Of a DNA stretch of 64,000 bases, positions 49,989 to 63,984 are shown one piece after another. Position 1 is the first letter of the stretch. Every line of letters begins with the position of its first letter. This stretch comes from Ferrimicrobium sp. (lineage in GTDB: Bacteria > Actinomycetota > Acidimicrobiia > Acidimicrobiales > Acidimicrobiaceae): positions 1 through 64,000 of the forward strand of contig JALCZJ010000002.1 of NCBI GenBank assembly GCA_022690815.1, given 5' to 3'. The translations under genes and the position numbers were made by a program. The notes under the pieces were generated by a model that was given only the letters and a program-made list of their open reading frames with translations, made no database searches and was not told the origin of the DNA.

Positions 49989-50629
49989 TGGAGGCTCGAT
50001 CCAACCCAGCTGCGGTCATTCGTCTGGACCTTCCCTCCGTCAACAGCGTCCTCGAGGATATCGGGCACGCCTCCTCCGCACCCGCACGTTCGGCGACTCA
50101 ATGGCGCGAAGAGCTCGAAGCCGTCAGAAGCGAGGCCTTCAATGAGGGAATCGAACACGCCAGAGCCATGCTCGATCGGGAGATGAAGGAGGAGATAGCG
50201 CGCTCTCGGTCTAACAACGAGTTGATCGATAGCGCCATCCGTGGCCTCCACCAGGCAAGAAGCCAGCAGTTCGCCATGGAGCTTGCTGATACCGTACGCT
50301 TTGGAATCGAGTTGGCTGAGCGAATTCTTCGCACTGATATTGCCCAACCCATCGAGCGGATCCGCCAAATCGTCGAGGAGACCGCTGAGACCGCGGCGAC
50401 CCAGGAGACCTTTTTGGTTCGTGTCGCTAGCGACAACCTGGACGCTGTGAACCAGACGCTGATGCCAAAACTCCTCGAACAGGGACTTGAGGCGGTGGCG
50501 GTCGTCGGGGAAGGGTTCGGGCCTCATGATCTGGTGGTGGAGGCCGGGGCGCGTGTCTTTGACGCCCGCCTTTCGACCGCCTTTGAGCGCGTGATCAACG
50601 AGTTGGGGAGCTGGCAACATGATTCCTGA
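49988..50629 (+). CDS. fliH: Flagellar assembly protein FliH
   Basis: 213 residues. A central helical region with spaced Glu/Ala/Arg (EAFNEGIEHARAMLD) is followed by a C-terminal FliH/type III domain (AERILR, LVEAG-like end). It regulates the FliI ATPase and docks it to FliN. The ATG shares one base with the fliG stop, and the gene overlaps fliI by 11 nt. Confidence 0.85.
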   Translation: MEARSNPAAVIRLDLPSVNSVLEDIGHASSAPARSATQWREELEAVRSEAFNEGIEHARAMLDREMKEEIARSRSNNELIDSAIRGLHQARSQQFAMELADTVRFGIELAERILRTDIAQPIERIRQIVEETAETAATQETFLVRVASDNLDAVNQTLMPKLLEQGLEAVAVVGEGFGPHDLVVEAGARVFDARLSTAFERVINELGSWQHDS

Positions 50630-51929
50630 CATAATGCGCGAGCGTCTCCTCTCCGTCGTTGAACCCACCCCGCGAGGACGAGTTTGTCGTCTCGTCGGCA
50701 TGCACTTGGAGGTCGAGGGGGTCGAGGCTGGTATCGGCGATGCCGTCGTCGTGGATCTCGGCGGATCCAAGACCCTGATCGCCGAGGTGGTTGGCCTCGA
50801 TAACCAGCGTCTGATCTGCATGCCCTTCAAGGAGATGACCGGGGTTCGCTACGGCAATGCCGCCTGGTCGCTCAAGCGGCCGCCACTGTTTCCGGTTGGT
50901 CCCTCCCTGCTTGGCAGGGTGCTCGATTCCGAAGGCCGACCAATCGATCAGCTTGGGCCACTTTCACCTGAGGATCTCGTCGTTATCGAGGGTCGTGCTC
51001 CATCGCCGATGGATCGCAGCCTGATTGACGAGCAGCTTTCGTTGGGTATTCGGGTGGTTGACTCGCTGGTGCCCTGTGGTATCGGTCAACGACTCGGCGT
51101 CTTTGCCGGTGCTGGGGTAGGGAAGTCCTCGCTGCTCTCGATGATGATTCGAGGCGCCGACGTCGATGTCATCGTGCTGGCTCTTGTTGGCGAACGCGGT
51201 CGAGAGGTGAAGGAGTTCCTTGAACACGATCTCGGCCCTGAAGGGCTCGCCAGGGCGGCCATCGTCGTCGCGACCTCCGATGCCCCTCCATTGCTGAGGG
51301 TCCGTGCCGCCCTGGCGGCAACTCGTGTCGCCGAGTGGTTCCGCGACCAGGGCAAACGGGTGCTATTGGTCATGGACTCGTTGACCCGCCTCGGTCTCGC
51401 CCAACGCGAGATTGGTCTCTCAGCTGGCGAACCGCCCAGCGTGCGTGGGTATCCACCGTCGGTGTTTGCCCTGATGGCTCGCCTCTTAGAGCGGGCGGGA
51501 ACCTCGAGTACGGGCAGCATCACCGGGATCTACTCGGTCCTTGTCGATGGCGACGATCTCAATGATCCGATTGCCGACTCGGCACGCTCGGTCCTCGACG
51601 GCCACATCGTCTTGAGCCGCTCACAGGCCCAGCGAGGGCTCTATCCTGCAGTATCGGTGCTTGAGTCGATCTCACGCCTCGAGACCGCGATCTTGGATGA
51701 ACCCAAGCGAGCACTTGCCCATGAGGCGCGACGCCTCTACGCCGAGCTCGACCAGGTTCGCGATCTGATTGACCTAGGTGCTTATGTCGCTGGATCAAAT
51801 GTCGATGTGGACCGAGCGCTCGCAGTAGTGCCAAACCTGACACGGCTGTTCGCCCAGGACCTGATGGAGCTCACTCCGGCCACAACCACGTGGGCGAGAC
51901 TCGCCCAAACCCTTGGGGTGTCGTCATGA
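50619..51929 (+). CDS. fliI: Flagellum-specific export ATPase FliI
   Basis: 436 residues, F1-beta-like. Walker A GAGVGKS (164-170), Walker B LLVMDSLTR, and the GEPPSVRGYPPSVF substrate-export segment are all present. The hexamer energises export of flagellar subunits. ATG 50619 is inside fliH; ATG 50634 is a possible alternative. Ends in a 4-nt overlap with fliJ. Confidence 0.97.
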   Translation: MIPDIMRERLLSVVEPTPRGRVCRLVGMHLEVEGVEAGIGDAVVVDLGGSKTLIAEVVGLDNQRLICMPFKEMTGVRYGNAAWSLKRPPLFPVGPSLLGRVLDSEGRPIDQLGPLSPEDLVVIEGRAPSPMDRSLIDEQLSLGIRVVDSLVPCGIGQRLGVFAGAGVGKSSLLSMMIRGADVDVIVLALVGERGREVKEFLEHDLGPEGLARAAIVVATSDAPPLLRVRAALAATRVAEWFRDQGKRVLLVMDSLTRLGLAQREIGLSAGEPPSVRGYPPSVFALMARLLERAGTSSTGSITGIYSVLVDGDDLNDPIADSARSVLDGHIVLSRSQAQRGLYPAVSVLESISRLETAILDEPKRALAHEARRLYAELDQVRDLIDLGAYVAGSNVDVDRALAVVPNLTRLFAQDLMELTPATTTWARLAQTLGVSS

Positions 51930-52381
51930 ACCTCGTTGGACGCCGCCGCGCACTCACGCTGTTGCTTCGCATGGGCGAGATTGAACGCTGGGAACATCTC
52001 CTTGAGCTACGCCGAGCGGTTGAGCTTCGCGCCGACGAACTTCGTGAGATGGATGATCACCTGTCGGTGGTTGAAGCCCGTGGTGATCTGGCCGATCTCG
52101 GTCCTGAGCATCTGATGATGGCCCAGGAGCATGGTCAAGCGGCCTTGGCGGCCGCCCAGACGATAAGCACCAAGGAACGCGCGCTGATCTCGCTTGACGC
52201 GCGCCGTCGCACGCTCGAGGATTTACGAATCGCGACTAATGGAGAACTCGCTCGCATGGAGGATCGGCGCCAACTCTCCGAGGTCCTGGACTTCTTCGTT
52301 GCCCGCCAGATCTATAACCGTCAAGACAGGATCCGTCAAGACGGCACCCAACAAGACAGTCAGGAGAGGAGTCACCTATGA
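51926..52381 (+). CDS. fliJ: Flagellar export protein FliJ
   Basis: 151 residues, almost entirely a coiled coil rich in Arg, Glu and Leu, as expected for the FliJ stalk of the export ATPase. Identification rests mainly on position between fliI and the hydrolase and on size. ATG 51926 overlaps the fliI stop (ATGA) and its own stop overlaps the next start. Confidence 0.8.
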   Translation: MNLVGRRRALTLLLRMGEIERWEHLLELRRAVELRADELREMDDHLSVVEARGDLADLGPEHLMMAQEHGQAALAAAQTISTKERALISLDARRRTLEDLRIATNGELARMEDRRQLSEVLDFFVARQIYNRQDRIRQDGTQQDSQERSHL

Positions 52382-53529
52382 ATGCGATCCCATCGACCCT
52401 TCCGGCACTCACCGATCTCTCCAACGCCTTCAGCCAGCTCGCGAGCCAAGCCACGACGGCGAGTGGCCCAAGTGAGTTCCTCGCGACGCTCAATCAGGTG
52501 CAATCGACTATCGGATCGATCCTTGACCCGTCGTCGACGACCTCGACGAGTGCTGCTACGACGAGCACGAATGGTTCGAGTACCGTCACCGGTGGGTCCA
52601 TATCGGACGCGCTAGGGGCATCCACGTTCGGGTCTACGACTGGACTCACGAGCGCTGGCCTCATCGCCGCTCCATCAACGAGCGCACCATCGCTGACCGC
52701 CTCGGCTGCGATCGGTCAGAGCGCGGTGAGCTCGACGACCTCGACCGCCTCGCCGGTGACACAGGCGGTAGCGGATGCCTTGAGTCAGATCGGTGTGCCC
52801 TATGTCTGGGGTGGTTCGTCACCCTCAACAGGCTTTGATTGCTCCGGGCTTGTTCAGTGGGCTTATGGTCAGGCGGGTATCGATCTGCCGAGAGTCGCTG
52901 ATCAACAGGAGCAGGTCGGGACTCAGGTTGCATCCATTCAGGATGCACAACCTGGGGATCTGGTCTTCTATGGCAATCCTGCCTACCACGTTGGCATCTA
53001 TCTTGGCAACGGGTACATGGTCGACGCACCCGAGACCGGTCAGACGGTGCAGATCCAACCGGTTGGATCTCCTACCGAGATCCGTAGCGTCGCACCCCAG
53101 GCGAGTGTCACGCCAGCTGGGATTGGGTCGAATGGCGCACCAAGTGATCTTGCACCTGTCTTCGCCGCGGCGAGTCAGGCCTACAATCTCCCGGCCAACC
53201 TGCTCACCTCGGTGGCTACGGCGGAGTCGGGGATGAATCCATCCGCGGTCTCATCGGCCGGCGCCGAGGGGATCATGCAAATCATGCCGCAAACGGCGGC
53301 ATCGCTTGGGGTGAATCCGATGGATCCAACGCAAGCGATCTATGGGGCGGCCGAACTGCTGGCGCAAAAACTCGCCAAGTTCGGATCCGTACCACTTGCG
53401 CTTGCGGCCTATAACGCCGGCGATGGAGCCGTCGAGCAGTACGGAGGGATACCGCCGTATGCCCAAACCGAGAATTACGTTACCGAAGTTATGGGACTCA
53501 TGGGAGGTCAAAATGTCACCAGTAGCTAA
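52378..53529 (+). CDS. NlpC/P60 plus lytic transglycosylase (SLT) bifunctional peptidoglycan hydrolase
   Basis: 383 residues. A Ser/Thr-rich N-terminal segment (about 1-120) has no classical signal peptide. An NlpC/P60 domain follows (about 128-235) with nucleophile C155 (FDCSGLVQW) and H204 (YHVGIYLG). Then a Gly/Pro linker and an SLT domain (about 262-375) with catalytic E283 (ATAESGMNP), GIMQIMPQTA and LALAAYNAGDGAV. It can in principle cut both peptide stems and glycan strands. It overlaps fliJ by 4 nt and fliK by 17 nt, so it belongs to the flagellar operon and probably opens the wall for the rod, the role FlgJ has in enterobacteria. Confidence 0.88.
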   Translation: MNAIPSTLPALTDLSNAFSQLASQATTASGPSEFLATLNQVQSTIGSILDPSSTTSTSAATTSTNGSSTVTGGSISDALGASTFGSTTGLTSAGLIAAPSTSAPSLTASAAIGQSAVSSTTSTASPVTQAVADALSQIGVPYVWGGSSPSTGFDCSGLVQWAYGQAGIDLPRVADQQEQVGTQVASIQDAQPGDLVFYGNPAYHVGIYLGNGYMVDAPETGQTVQIQPVGSPTEIRSVAPQASVTPAGIGSNGAPSDLAPVFAAASQAYNLPANLLTSVATAESGMNPSAVSSAGAEGIMQIMPQTAASLGVNPMDPTQAIYGAAELLAQKLAKFGSVPLALAAYNAGDGAVEQYGGIPPYAQTENYVTEVMGLMGGQNVTSS

Positions 53530-54976
53530 GTCAGCTAGTACCCCGCTTCTTGAGGCGATTCCAGTGAGCACCCCCAAGGCTGCTCCGGGTGTGCCAAAGG
53601 GAGCCGCCCAGGCAAATGGCTCCTCCAACTTCGCGGAGACGAGCTTTGCACAGGTGCAGGCACAGGTAAAACATCAAAAATACGGCGCTAATCAGCACAC
53701 ACCAGGGCGAGGCATTCCGGTGACGACGACGCTCACCCCCGCCAAGACACCTCCTAAGGACGAGCCGCCCACAACGGCAAAGTCCGCCCATGTCAAATCG
53801 ACGAGATCTGGCTCCTTGATCGTTACGCTCGTTGGAGGTGTGCCCCCATCAGCTGGAGCCATGCCCACGGCACCTGCAACGACGGTGTCCGGTGCGGGTA
53901 CCAAGGGTAAGCCAGCTATACCGGTGGGAACGACCTTGACTCCGATGCTTTCGCAAGCTGGGAGAGGTCGCTCCGAGGCAACCGGGACGCCCAATACGAC
54001 ATCACACGAGGGTCCAGCACCCGTGCTGGTGTCGAGCACTGCAAGCACCCCCGGGGCAAGCCGTTTGTACAACCAATCGATCGCCGCGACGCTCGACGCT
54101 GGTGGTACAGCGAAAGGCACCCCGCAGCCAACAAAGCCAACCCGGGTATCGGACGAGATCGCGAGCCAGACAGGCTCGACTCCGTCGTCGATCCCGTCTT
54201 CATCGGCTACGACGAACGGGCTTGGGGTGGCACTGGCTGCGTCGGGTCAGACCAGATCTGGGTCGCAACTGAGCGTTGAACAGGTTCAAGAGCTAAGGGG
54301 TGACACAGCACGAGGCGAGGTCCTGTCCGCCAAGGCTCATGGGCATGCCAAGGTCCTTGGGCAAGCCGAGTCCGGTACTAACGTGAGGGCCCTTGGGTCG
54401 ACCGGTCGGGGCGCGAGTGACGCCAGCGAGCAGAATTTTTCCCAGCTCGCTGGGCTTCGTGGCGCTGTGCAAGCGAGTAGCGCATCGGGTGGGCCAGCAG
54501 GGCACACCGATACGGCGTTGACCCCGCAGTCCGCATTGGCGACACCGCTGGCGAGTGGGACCTCGGAGACGATCGGGTCCACACCGTTGGGCCAACTTGG
54601 CACCGTGGTGGCGCAGGTAGTCCGGGAGGGCAATCTGCCGAGGACGATCACCATCTCGCTTGAGCCCAAGGAGCTTGGACAGCTCCAACTTCAGGTGATG
54701 TCGAACGCCGGTGAGATCCAGGTGCTGATTCATGTTGCCGATCCTCTCACGAGGGGCATGGTCAGTGCACAGCTGGGCGATTTGACCAACCTGTTGAACC
54801 GTGACCTGGGCTTTGGTGGGCAACAAACCGGTAACCAAGGTGGGCATCCCGAACCTGGCCCGTCGGTCCCTACACAAGAGACTGGCCTCGTTCAGGCTAG
54901 CGACGCCCTCAGGGCGCAACCGGACGTGATGCCCGCCGGGCTCAGTACCCATTCGCTCATCGATCTAAGACTGTAA
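53513..54976 (+). CDS. fliK: Flagellar hook-length control protein FliK
   Basis: 487 residues. A long, low-complexity Pro/Thr/Ser/Gly N-terminal part (about 1-360), typical of the ruler, is followed by the conserved C-terminal Flg_hook domain (ITISLEPKELGQLQLQV, about 385-455). It measures hook length and switches export from hook to filament. GGAGG is 6 nt before ATG 53513, which lies within the hydrolase gene. Confidence 0.9.
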   Translation: MSPVAKSASTPLLEAIPVSTPKAAPGVPKGAAQANGSSNFAETSFAQVQAQVKHQKYGANQHTPGRGIPVTTTLTPAKTPPKDEPPTTAKSAHVKSTRSGSLIVTLVGGVPPSAGAMPTAPATTVSGAGTKGKPAIPVGTTLTPMLSQAGRGRSEATGTPNTTSHEGPAPVLVSSTASTPGASRLYNQSIAATLDAGGTAKGTPQPTKPTRVSDEIASQTGSTPSSIPSSSATTNGLGVALAASGQTRSGSQLSVEQVQELRGDTARGEVLSAKAHGHAKVLGQAESGTNVRALGSTGRGASDASEQNFSQLAGLRGAVQASSASGGPAGHTDTALTPQSALATPLASGTSETIGSTPLGQLGTVVAQVVREGNLPRTITISLEPKELGQLQLQVMSNAGEIQVLIHVADPLTRGMVSAQLGDLTNLLNRDLGFGGQQTGNQGGHPEPGPSVPTQETGLVQASDALRAQPDVMPAGLSTHSLIDLRL

Positions 54977-62853: not shown

Positions 62854-63984
62854 ATGCCCAAGAACGAAGGTACCGAGCAGGCAACGGCGCACAAACTCGA
62901 GAAGGCGCGCAAGGAGGGGACGGTCGCGCGCTCGGCGGAGCTCGCGACCTGGCTGGTGATCTTGGCCTTTTCGTTGGCGATGCCGTTGGTGTTCAGCTTG
63001 GTGGAGGGCAAGATCGTCGCCTTTGGTCACCTCTCCTTTGATGGCAACGCCGCCGTCACATCGGCGACAGCGTTGCGTCGCCTCGAGACTGGTCTCGAGA
63101 CGGTTGGTGAGCTCGCCATCATCGTCGCCACACCGATCGCGCTCTTTGTTGCCCTTATCAACGTGGCCCAGGTTGGGATCCGCTTCGTGCCAAAGAAGAT
63201 CAAACCCGACGTCACCCACTTTTCGCCAAAGAAGAATCTGTCGCGGATCTTCTCGACCACGCCCGCCATCGAGGCGCTCAAGTCGTTGGTAAAGCTTCTC
63301 ATTGTGGTTGTGGTCTCGGTGCTCCTGCTGCTTGGGGGGATCGATTCGCTGACGTCGGCTTCACTCTCGCCGATGGCCGTCGCCACGCAAGTCGCCTCGA
63401 TGAGCGTCGAATTGGTGCGACTTACCGGTGTGCTCGGGCTGGTCATCGCGCTCATCGACTACGGGCGTTCCCGCATCCAGGTTCGCAAGCAGCTGATGAT
63501 GACGCGTCAAGAGGTCAAGGACGAGATGAAGCAGTACGAAGGCGACCTCCAGACCAAAGGCCGCCGGCGCCGCGTTGCTCGTGAAATCTCGCGACGACGG
63601 ATGATCGCCAACGTTGCTCTCGCCGACGTCGTCGTGGCTAATCCGACGCATGTGGCGGTGGCACTCAAATACGAACCGCTTACCCATCGGGCTCCAATTG
63701 TGCTCGCCAAGGGGTCAGAATACATCGCGGCCACCATCCGTGAAAGGGCCCGAGCGGCCGGAGTTCCGATTGTCATCGACCCACCGCTCGCGCGAGCACT
63801 CAACATCGCGGTACCGGTCGGGGAATCAATCCCGGGTTCGCTCTTTTTGGTCGTGGCCCGTCTGTTGGCGTTCGTCTATCAGCTCTCGACGACCGCGCGC
63901 TACTACGAATCCTCTCATCAGAGCAATCTCGACGAGATCCCGGAAGATATCTTGGAGCGCGTCCTGAGTGAACTGGCCACCTAG
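62854..63984 (+). CDS. flhB: Flagellar export switch protein FlhB
   Basis: 376 residues. N-terminal GTEQATAHKLEKARKEGTVARSAEL leads into four transmembrane helices. The cytoplasmic domain carries the self-cleaving N-P-T-H at 263-266 (VVANPTHVAVAL). FlhB changes substrate specificity from hook to filament with FliK. The window ends 16 bp after its stop; flhA would be the expected next gene. Confidence 0.96.
   Translation: MPKNEGTEQATAHKLEKARKEGTVARSAELATWLVILAFSLAMPLVFSLVEGKIVAFGHLSFDGNAAVTSATALRRLETGLETVGELAIIVATPIALFVALINVAQVGIRFVPKKIKPDVTHFSPKKNLSRIFSTTPAIEALKSLVKLLIVVVVSVLLLLGGIDSLTSASLSPMAVATQVASMSVELVRLTGVLGLVIALIDYGRSRIQVRKQLMMTRQEVKDEMKQYEGDLQTKGRRRRVAREISRRRMIANVALADVVVANPTHVAVALKYEPLTHRAPIVLAKGSEYIAATIRERARAAGVPIVIDPPLARALNIAVPVGESIPGSLFLVVARLLAFVYQLSTTARYYESSHQSNLDEIPEDILERVLSELAT

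What the first reader, a model, noticed from the sequence alone, without database searches (positions are those of the whole stretch)
52378..53529. Two-headed NlpC/P60-SLT wall hydrolase inside the flagellar operon
Cys endopeptidase (C155, H204) and transglycosylase (E283) domains sit in one protein embedded by overlaps between fliJ and fliK. It lacks a classical signal peptide, so it may be exported by the flagellar apparatus, with the Ser/Thr-rich N-terminus as export signal. This replaces the role of FlgJ (rod cap plus muramidase) with both glycan- and peptide-cutting activity, perhaps suited to an actinobacterial wall.
Basis: partly seen in the sequence, partly recalled or inferred. Interest (0 to 1): 0.55.

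Follow-up and report, generated by a model that had tools for sequence, protein, structure and literature searches.

The report
Flagellum-exported two-headed wall-cutting enzyme
A gene inside a bacterium's flagellum-building operon encodes an enzyme with two different wall-cutting domains, and its front end looks like the tag that flagellar parts carry, so the growing flagellum probably exports its own drill to pass the cell wall.

Summary
Confirmed: window 52378-53529 is an intact 383-aa protein with an NlpC/P60 and an SLT domain, joined by short overlaps to fliJ and fliK. The gene fills a recurrent slot. Of 90 flagellar fliI loci from Actinomycetota genomes, 65 carry a wall hydrolase there: SLT alone 35, NlpC-SLT 14, NlpC alone 13, SLT-NlpC 3. 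Catalytic heads vary, but the first ~75 residues share one plan: no Sec-type hydrophobic core (0 of 65) and a FxxxPhi motif (60 of 65; shuffled mean 20.6), like the FlhB 'gate recognition motif' of early flagellar export substrates. In 73 non-slot SLT/NlpC proteins the pattern reverses: 61 have a hydrophobic core, 17 the motif. The window has FLATL at 34-38; Salmonella FlgD has FLTLL at 36-40. In three species the slot SLT is fused in one frame to FliK, itself an export substrate. The own genome shows no FlgJ rod-binding domain and no other SLT. Best reading: an early flagellar type III substrate that opens the wall for the rod, replacing FlgJ's enzymatic half but not its cap. The Ser/Thr-rich stretch is a linker. 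No experiment was done.

The parts
52378..53529 (+). whole gene: flagellar-operon wall hydrolase, 383 aa, NlpC/P60 + SLT
52378..52527 (+). residues 1-50: predicted export region (two predicted helices 4-26 and 30-49)
   Evidence: motif counts; profile shared between architectures; AF2 model, pLDDT about 54-73 here
52477..52491 (+). FLATL, residues 34-38: gate-recognition-like motif FxxxPhi
   Evidence: Salmonella FlgD 36-FLTLL-40 from PMC8983047 section 6
52534..52746 (+). residues 53-123: Ser/Thr/Ala-rich linker, pLDDT under 50
52792..53067 (+). NlpC/P60 endopeptidase domain (residues 139-230; C155, H204, D216)
53158..53454 (+). SLT lytic transglycosylase domain (residues about 261-359; E283); the only SLT match in the genome
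51926..52381 (+). fliJ (by position and 4-bp overlaps; no Pfam match)
53513..54976 (+). fliK (Flg_hook domain), 17-bp overlap with the hydrolase
50619..51929 (+). fliI export ATPase, anchor of the survey
62854..63984 (+). FlhB, the expected docking gate; keeps NPTH and the residues aligned to A286, P287, A341, L344 of a solved FlhB
   Evidence: role of those four residues recalled (Evans 2013)

Best explanation
The protein is an early (rod/hook-type) substrate of the flagellar type III export apparatus. Its first ~50 residues dock at FlhB through FLATL (34-38) and open the gate with the nonpolar extreme N-terminus. The two enzyme domains unfold, pass through the nascent rod and refold outside the membrane, where SLT cuts glycan strands and NlpC/P60 cuts stem peptides so that the rod can cross the thick wall; the long linker gives them reach. 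It supplies the enzymatic half of FlgJ without a rod cap. Shown by sequence: domains, catalytic residues, operon slot, shared N-terminal plan, lack of a Sec-type core, FliK fusion elsewhere, no FlgJ domain found in this genome. Inferred: export route, enzymatic activity, timing, and need for motility.
For: Slot hydrolase in 65 of 90 flagellar fliI loci. FxxxPhi after residue 15 in 60 of 65, shuffled mean 20.6, sd 3.7, max 33; R[IVML]xxI within the first 45 residues in 53 of 65, shuffled mean 2.9, max 11. Non-slot SLT/NlpC proteins: hydrophobic core 61 of 73 and FxxxPhi 17 of 73, against 0 and 60 of 65 in the slot; known substrates FlgD 50 of 51 and FliK 18 of 21 carry FxxxPhi. With start codons chosen to favour a Sec core, still 0 of 65. 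An N-terminal profile from 34 SLT-only proteins finds 13 of 13 NlpC-only and 3 of 3 SLT-NlpC N-termini. First FxxxPhi at median residue 36, at 25 or later in 55 of 60, agreeing with the spacing reported for Salmonella. SLT-FliK single-frame fusion in G227, G821, G793. The other NlpC protein of this genome has a Sec-like signal. FlhB keeps its pocket residues.
Against: No export or motility experiment. FxxxPhi is a loose motif, and related sequences are not independent. The window's own N-terminus lacks R-I-x-x-I and is missed by the SLT-only profile (E 1.7); only the spacing of hydrophobic residues and FLATL remain. In 11 of 90 loci no hydrolase lies before fliK or flgD, and none of 8 genomes of group f27 has any SLT match, so some flagellated relatives do without it. 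B. subtilis is reported to lack a dedicated flagellar wall enzyme (PMC12153297, passages). Known separate flagellar SLTs are Sec-exported (PMC8517470, passages).
Confidence: 0.72

Rival explanations
1. Exported by the flagellar apparatus, but the N-terminal helices also assemble with rod-base proteins (FliE-like), so the enzyme stays at the rod instead of diffusing away.
For: The layout (short helix, then FxxxL) resembles FliE by eye: window FliE has SSFGQIL. Two helices predicted at 4-49.
Against: No profile-profile comparison with FliE was run; the motif is also in FlgD and FliK, so it can be a plain export signal.
Confidence: 0.15
2. Exported by a non-flagellar route (Sec, Tat or lysis) and used in general wall turnover; the operon position only ties expression to the flagellum.
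For: NlpC and SLT domains are common housekeeping heads; the position alone proves co-expression only.
Against: 0 of 65 slot proteins have a Sec-type core, against 61 of 73 non-slot homologues; the fusion with FliK.
Confidence: 0.06
3. The enzyme acts later, loosening the wall for stator anchoring, hook passage or cell separation, not for rod passage.
For: In Borrelia the flagellar SLT mutant has hooks that fail to cross the wall (PMC8517470, passages); the gene lies beside fliK, flgD and flgE.
Against: Nothing specific; the present data do not resolve timing.
Confidence: 0.2

Closest known systems
FlgJ (dual-domain, beta/gamma-proteobacteria)
   Same: Flagellum-dedicated wall enzyme that makes holes for the rod (PMC8517470 and PMC12153297, passages); its travel by the flagellar export route is recalled
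   Different: No Rod-binding domain PF10135 found in this genome; SLT and NlpC heads in place of GH73
SltF (Rhodobacter) and BB0259 (Borrelia) flagellar lytic transglycosylases
   Same: SLT domain dedicated to flagellar wall passage
   Different: Flagellar SLTs are reported to be Sec-secreted and to work with FlgJ (PMC8517470, passages); here no Sec-type core, no FlgJ match, extra NlpC head
CwlT / Tn916-type conjugation hydrolases (PDB 4hpe)
   Same: Glycan-cutting plus NlpC/P60 head in one protein serving a trans-envelope machine (NlpC match; two-headed nature recalled)
   Different: Opposite domain order here (NlpC first); export route and machine differ. SLT-NlpC order does occur in 3 of 65 slot proteins
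CwlQ (B. subtilis)
   Same: SLT enzyme tied to motility (recalled); used as a rod-associated query in the actinobacterial survey PMC10746217
   Different: A title in a reference list says required for swarming, not assembly; paper itself not read
RipA/RipB/RipC and DIP1281 NlpC/P60 proteins
   Same: NlpC/P60 domain family (far below the equivalog cut-offs)
   Different: No Sec signal, SLT head added

Membership tests
NlpC/P60 peptidases (PF00877) | profile match over cut-off with Cys and His | tested here: met
SLT transglycosylases (PF01464) | profile match over cut-off with catalytic Glu in ES motif | tested here: met
FlgJ | N-terminal rod-binding (cap) domain PF10135 | tested here: not met
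   No match in the protein or own genome; 0 of 28 class genomes, 9 of 52 other flagellated phylum genomes. The profile may miss divergent caps
FlgJ | GH73 glucosaminidase head | tested here: not met
   SLT and NLPC_P60 only
SltF/BB0259 type | Sec signal peptide | tested here: not met
   hydropathy only; no SignalP available
early flagellar type III substrates | FxxxPhi gate recognition motif about 24 or more residues behind a nonpolar N-terminus | tested here: met
   FLATL 34-38; PMC8983047 section 6
early flagellar type III substrates | export lost in export-apparatus mutants | not testable with these tools
   needs an experiment

The most novel reading that the evidence does not exclude
Actinomycetota flagella carry a modular, type III-exported wall-drilling cassette: one conserved export head to which SLT, NlpC, both in either order, or a divergent lysozyme-like domain in a tandem gene have been attached repeatedly, independent of any rod cap; in one genus the drill is built into the hook-length ruler FliK, so one exported molecule both cuts the wall and measures the hook.
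Probability: 0.45. Interest if true: 0.78.

Novelty: new variant of a known kind. Interest (0 to 1): 0.62.

Why it matters
The 2023 survey of actinobacterial flagella names as open how a simple rod without FlgFG and FlgJ assembles in thick peptidoglycan (PMC10746217, passages). This gives a named, testable enzyme for that step. It also predicts a catalytic cargo of the flagellar export system that carries its own export head without a cap domain, and a natural hydrolase-ruler fusion.

Tried and rejected
Rejected: chance or spurious ORF (profile scores, conserved residues, synteny). Rejected: Ser/Thr-rich N-terminus as the signal (not the conserved part). Rejected: membership in FlgJ (no PF10135, no GH73). 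Considered: NlpC head as inactive RipD-like; C155 and H204 are kept, so rejected. Phylum of L022 (Fonticella, Clostridia side) as a second home: of 119 genomes searched I fetched 40 slots, all on the plus strand, and found 1 with a slot SLT carrying the same N-terminus (L252); the rest have another gene (often with a membrane segment, MotE-like) or none between fliJ and fliK. Foldseek against PDB gave only domain-level NlpC and SLT matches. Not run: profile comparison with FliE, SignalP, any tree of the hydrolase itself. The Desulfovibrio SLT locus L033 showed no flagellar neighbours by blastp.

Dropped before counts or chosen: L077 and L135 are in the 65, but L077 was left out of the profile sets (64 used). 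Five start codons were reset by hand (L080, L084, L100, L131, L133), in part because the motif lay upstream; this leans towards the motif. The 73 controls include at least one flagellar-looking protein (L179), and their starts were picked to favour a Sec core; one search repeats that rule on the slot set. Eight 'decoys' hit by the profiles turned out to be seven tandem slot genes and one remnant; some FlgE and FliK N-termini also scored E 0.001-0.01 with the NlpC-SLT profile.

Full report
OBSERVATION. The ORF 52378-53529 (+) encodes 383 aa with Pfam NLPC_P60 at 139-230 (E 1e-28) and SLT at 262-358 (E 3e-25). It lies in a flagellar cluster: two FlgB/FlgC-type rod proteins, FliE, FliF, FliG, a FliH-like ORF, FliI, FliJ, this gene, FliK, FlgD, FlgE, MotA, MotB, FliM, FliN, FliO, FliP, FliR, FlhB (FliH and FliJ by position). 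It overlaps fliJ by 4 bp and, with the likelier fliK start at 53513, fliK by 17 bp. The genome (2.54 Mb, 60 contigs, 98% complete) has one SLT match, this one, and two NlpC matches, this one and L002; L002 has an arginine-led hydrophobic N-terminal segment of Sec type. Related named loci include Ferrithrix thermotolerans (L006, 48% identity), an Acidimicrobiaceae, and metagenome-assembled Actinomycetes at 76% (L003, L004), with fliI before and flgD and flgE behind.

SURVEY. To avoid choosing by the hydrolase, I anchored on the FliI C-domain PF18269: 36 of 247 class genomes and 80 of 396 phylum genomes match. Leaving out one weak class match and the phylum matches weaker than E 1e-10 (probably other ATPases), and counting shared genomes once, I fetched the DNA behind 34 class and 55 further fliI genes and added the window: 90 loci. 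Between fliI and fliK, 65 carry a hydrolase ORF: SLT 35, NlpC-SLT 14, NlpC 13, SLT-NlpC 3. The other 25: one signal-bearing ORF cut by a contig end (L132), two remnants (L139, L141), eleven with no hydrolase found before fliK or flgD (three of them on short contigs), two with only a MotE-like gene (L109, L125), five with fliI not followed by the usual genes (L117, L123, L124, L147, L156), and four too short to judge. These last groupings were read by eye. In the class, 22 of 35 have the hydrolase.

THE SHARED HEAD. The N-termini share a plan: a short nonpolar start, a helix often reading RIxxIxxRF, then FxxxPhi, then a variable linker. FxxxPhi after residue 15: 60 of 65, shuffled mean 20.6 (sd 3.7, max 33 in 1000 shuffles); R[IVML]xxI in the first 45 residues: 53 of 65, shuffled mean 2.9 (max 11 in 200 shuffles). 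Cross-detection: a profile from SLT-only N-termini finds 13 of 13 NlpC-only, 3 of 3 SLT-NlpC and 4 of 14 NlpC-SLT at E 0.01 or better; a profile from NlpC-SLT finds 10 of 13 NlpC and 21 of 34 SLT; no shuffled sequence passed (64 tried). The window is not found by the SLT-only profile (E 1.7); its helix reads ALTDLSNAF where others read RIAEIQSRF, keeping the hydrophobic spacing only. Against this, 73 SLT/NlpC proteins from outside the slot have a Sec-like core in 61 and FxxxPhi in 17; slot proteins 0 and 60 of 65; FlgD 50 of 51 and FliK 18 of 21 have FxxxPhi. Allowing slot proteins the start codon that most favours a Sec core still gives 0 of 65.

WHY EXPORT. In Salmonella, early rod/hook subunits carry a nonpolar N-terminal signal and a gate recognition motif docking at FlhB; in FlgD these are residues 2-5 and 36-FLTLL-40, with export best when about 24 residues part them (PMC8983047, section 6 part 1 and passages). 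The window has FLATL at 34-38. Its FlhB keeps NPTH and the residues aligned with A286, P287, A341, L344 (pocket role recalled).

MODULES AND FUSION. In seven f68 genomes and L145 (f74) two tandem slot genes both carry the head: a lysozyme-like one (weak Glucosaminidase or SLT matches below cut-off in the three of eight scanned) and an NlpC one. In two f70 genomes (L139, L141) the head remains as a 60-61 aa ORF with the enzyme gone. In G227, G821 and G793 one frame encodes head, SLT and FliK C-domain, between fliJ and flgD (both flanks read in G793); Pfam SLT 2e-27 and Flg_hook 1e-14 in G227, SLT 2e-26 and Flg_hook 6e-15 in G793. Parsimony on a quick FlgE tree of 59 rows needs 13 architecture changes (shuffled mean 32); 23 of its 56 inner branches are open, so the number is rough.

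FLGJ. PF10135 is absent from the own genome and from 28 of 28 class genomes searched, and present in 9 of 52 other flagellated phylum genomes; the 2023 survey reports FlgJ absent from three later classes (PMC10746217, passages). That paper's text holds no 'hydrolase', 'NlpC' or 'lytic'; it used CwlQ as a query, and its figures could not be seen. Searches of the held library (listings only, apart from the four papers read in passages) showed no description of this slot or of an SLT-FliK fusion; subscription journals are mostly not held.

MECHANISM AND LIMITS. Shown: anatomy, conservation, context. Inferred: export route, activity, timing. Some relatives lack the enzyme (8 of 8 f27 genomes without any SLT match), so it is not universally needed. 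AlphaFold2 supports two N-terminal helices, a linker and two domains, at moderate confidence; Foldseek gives NlpC/P60 and SLT structures.

Noticed in passing
L097:3973-5340 (-); L268:2313-3677 (-); L269:3459-4721 (+): Single-frame fusion of the slot transglycosylase with the hook-length ruler FliK in three genomes of one genus.
   Followed up: partly
L110, L111, L113, L114, L118, L137, L140, L145: about 700-1800 of the oriented stretch: Two tandem slot genes, lysozyme-like then NlpC, each with the export-like head.
   Followed up: partly
L139 and L141, oriented 715-900: Remnant ORF of 60-61 aa: head kept, enzyme domain lost; close relatives L115 and L143 are intact.
   Followed up: partly
L252:699-1319: One of 40 sampled slots from the phylum of Fonticella has a slot SLT with the same head, followed by a MotE-like gene.
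   Followed up: no
L179 (G446:C15:48527): SLT protein with a gate-motif-like start (FATML), about 19 kb from fliI on the same contig: the slot gene may have moved.
   Followed up: no
L072, L079, L092, L096, L098 (group f27): Flagellated genomes with fliJ followed directly by fliK and no SLT match in the genome; how their rods cross the wall is open.
   Followed up: partly
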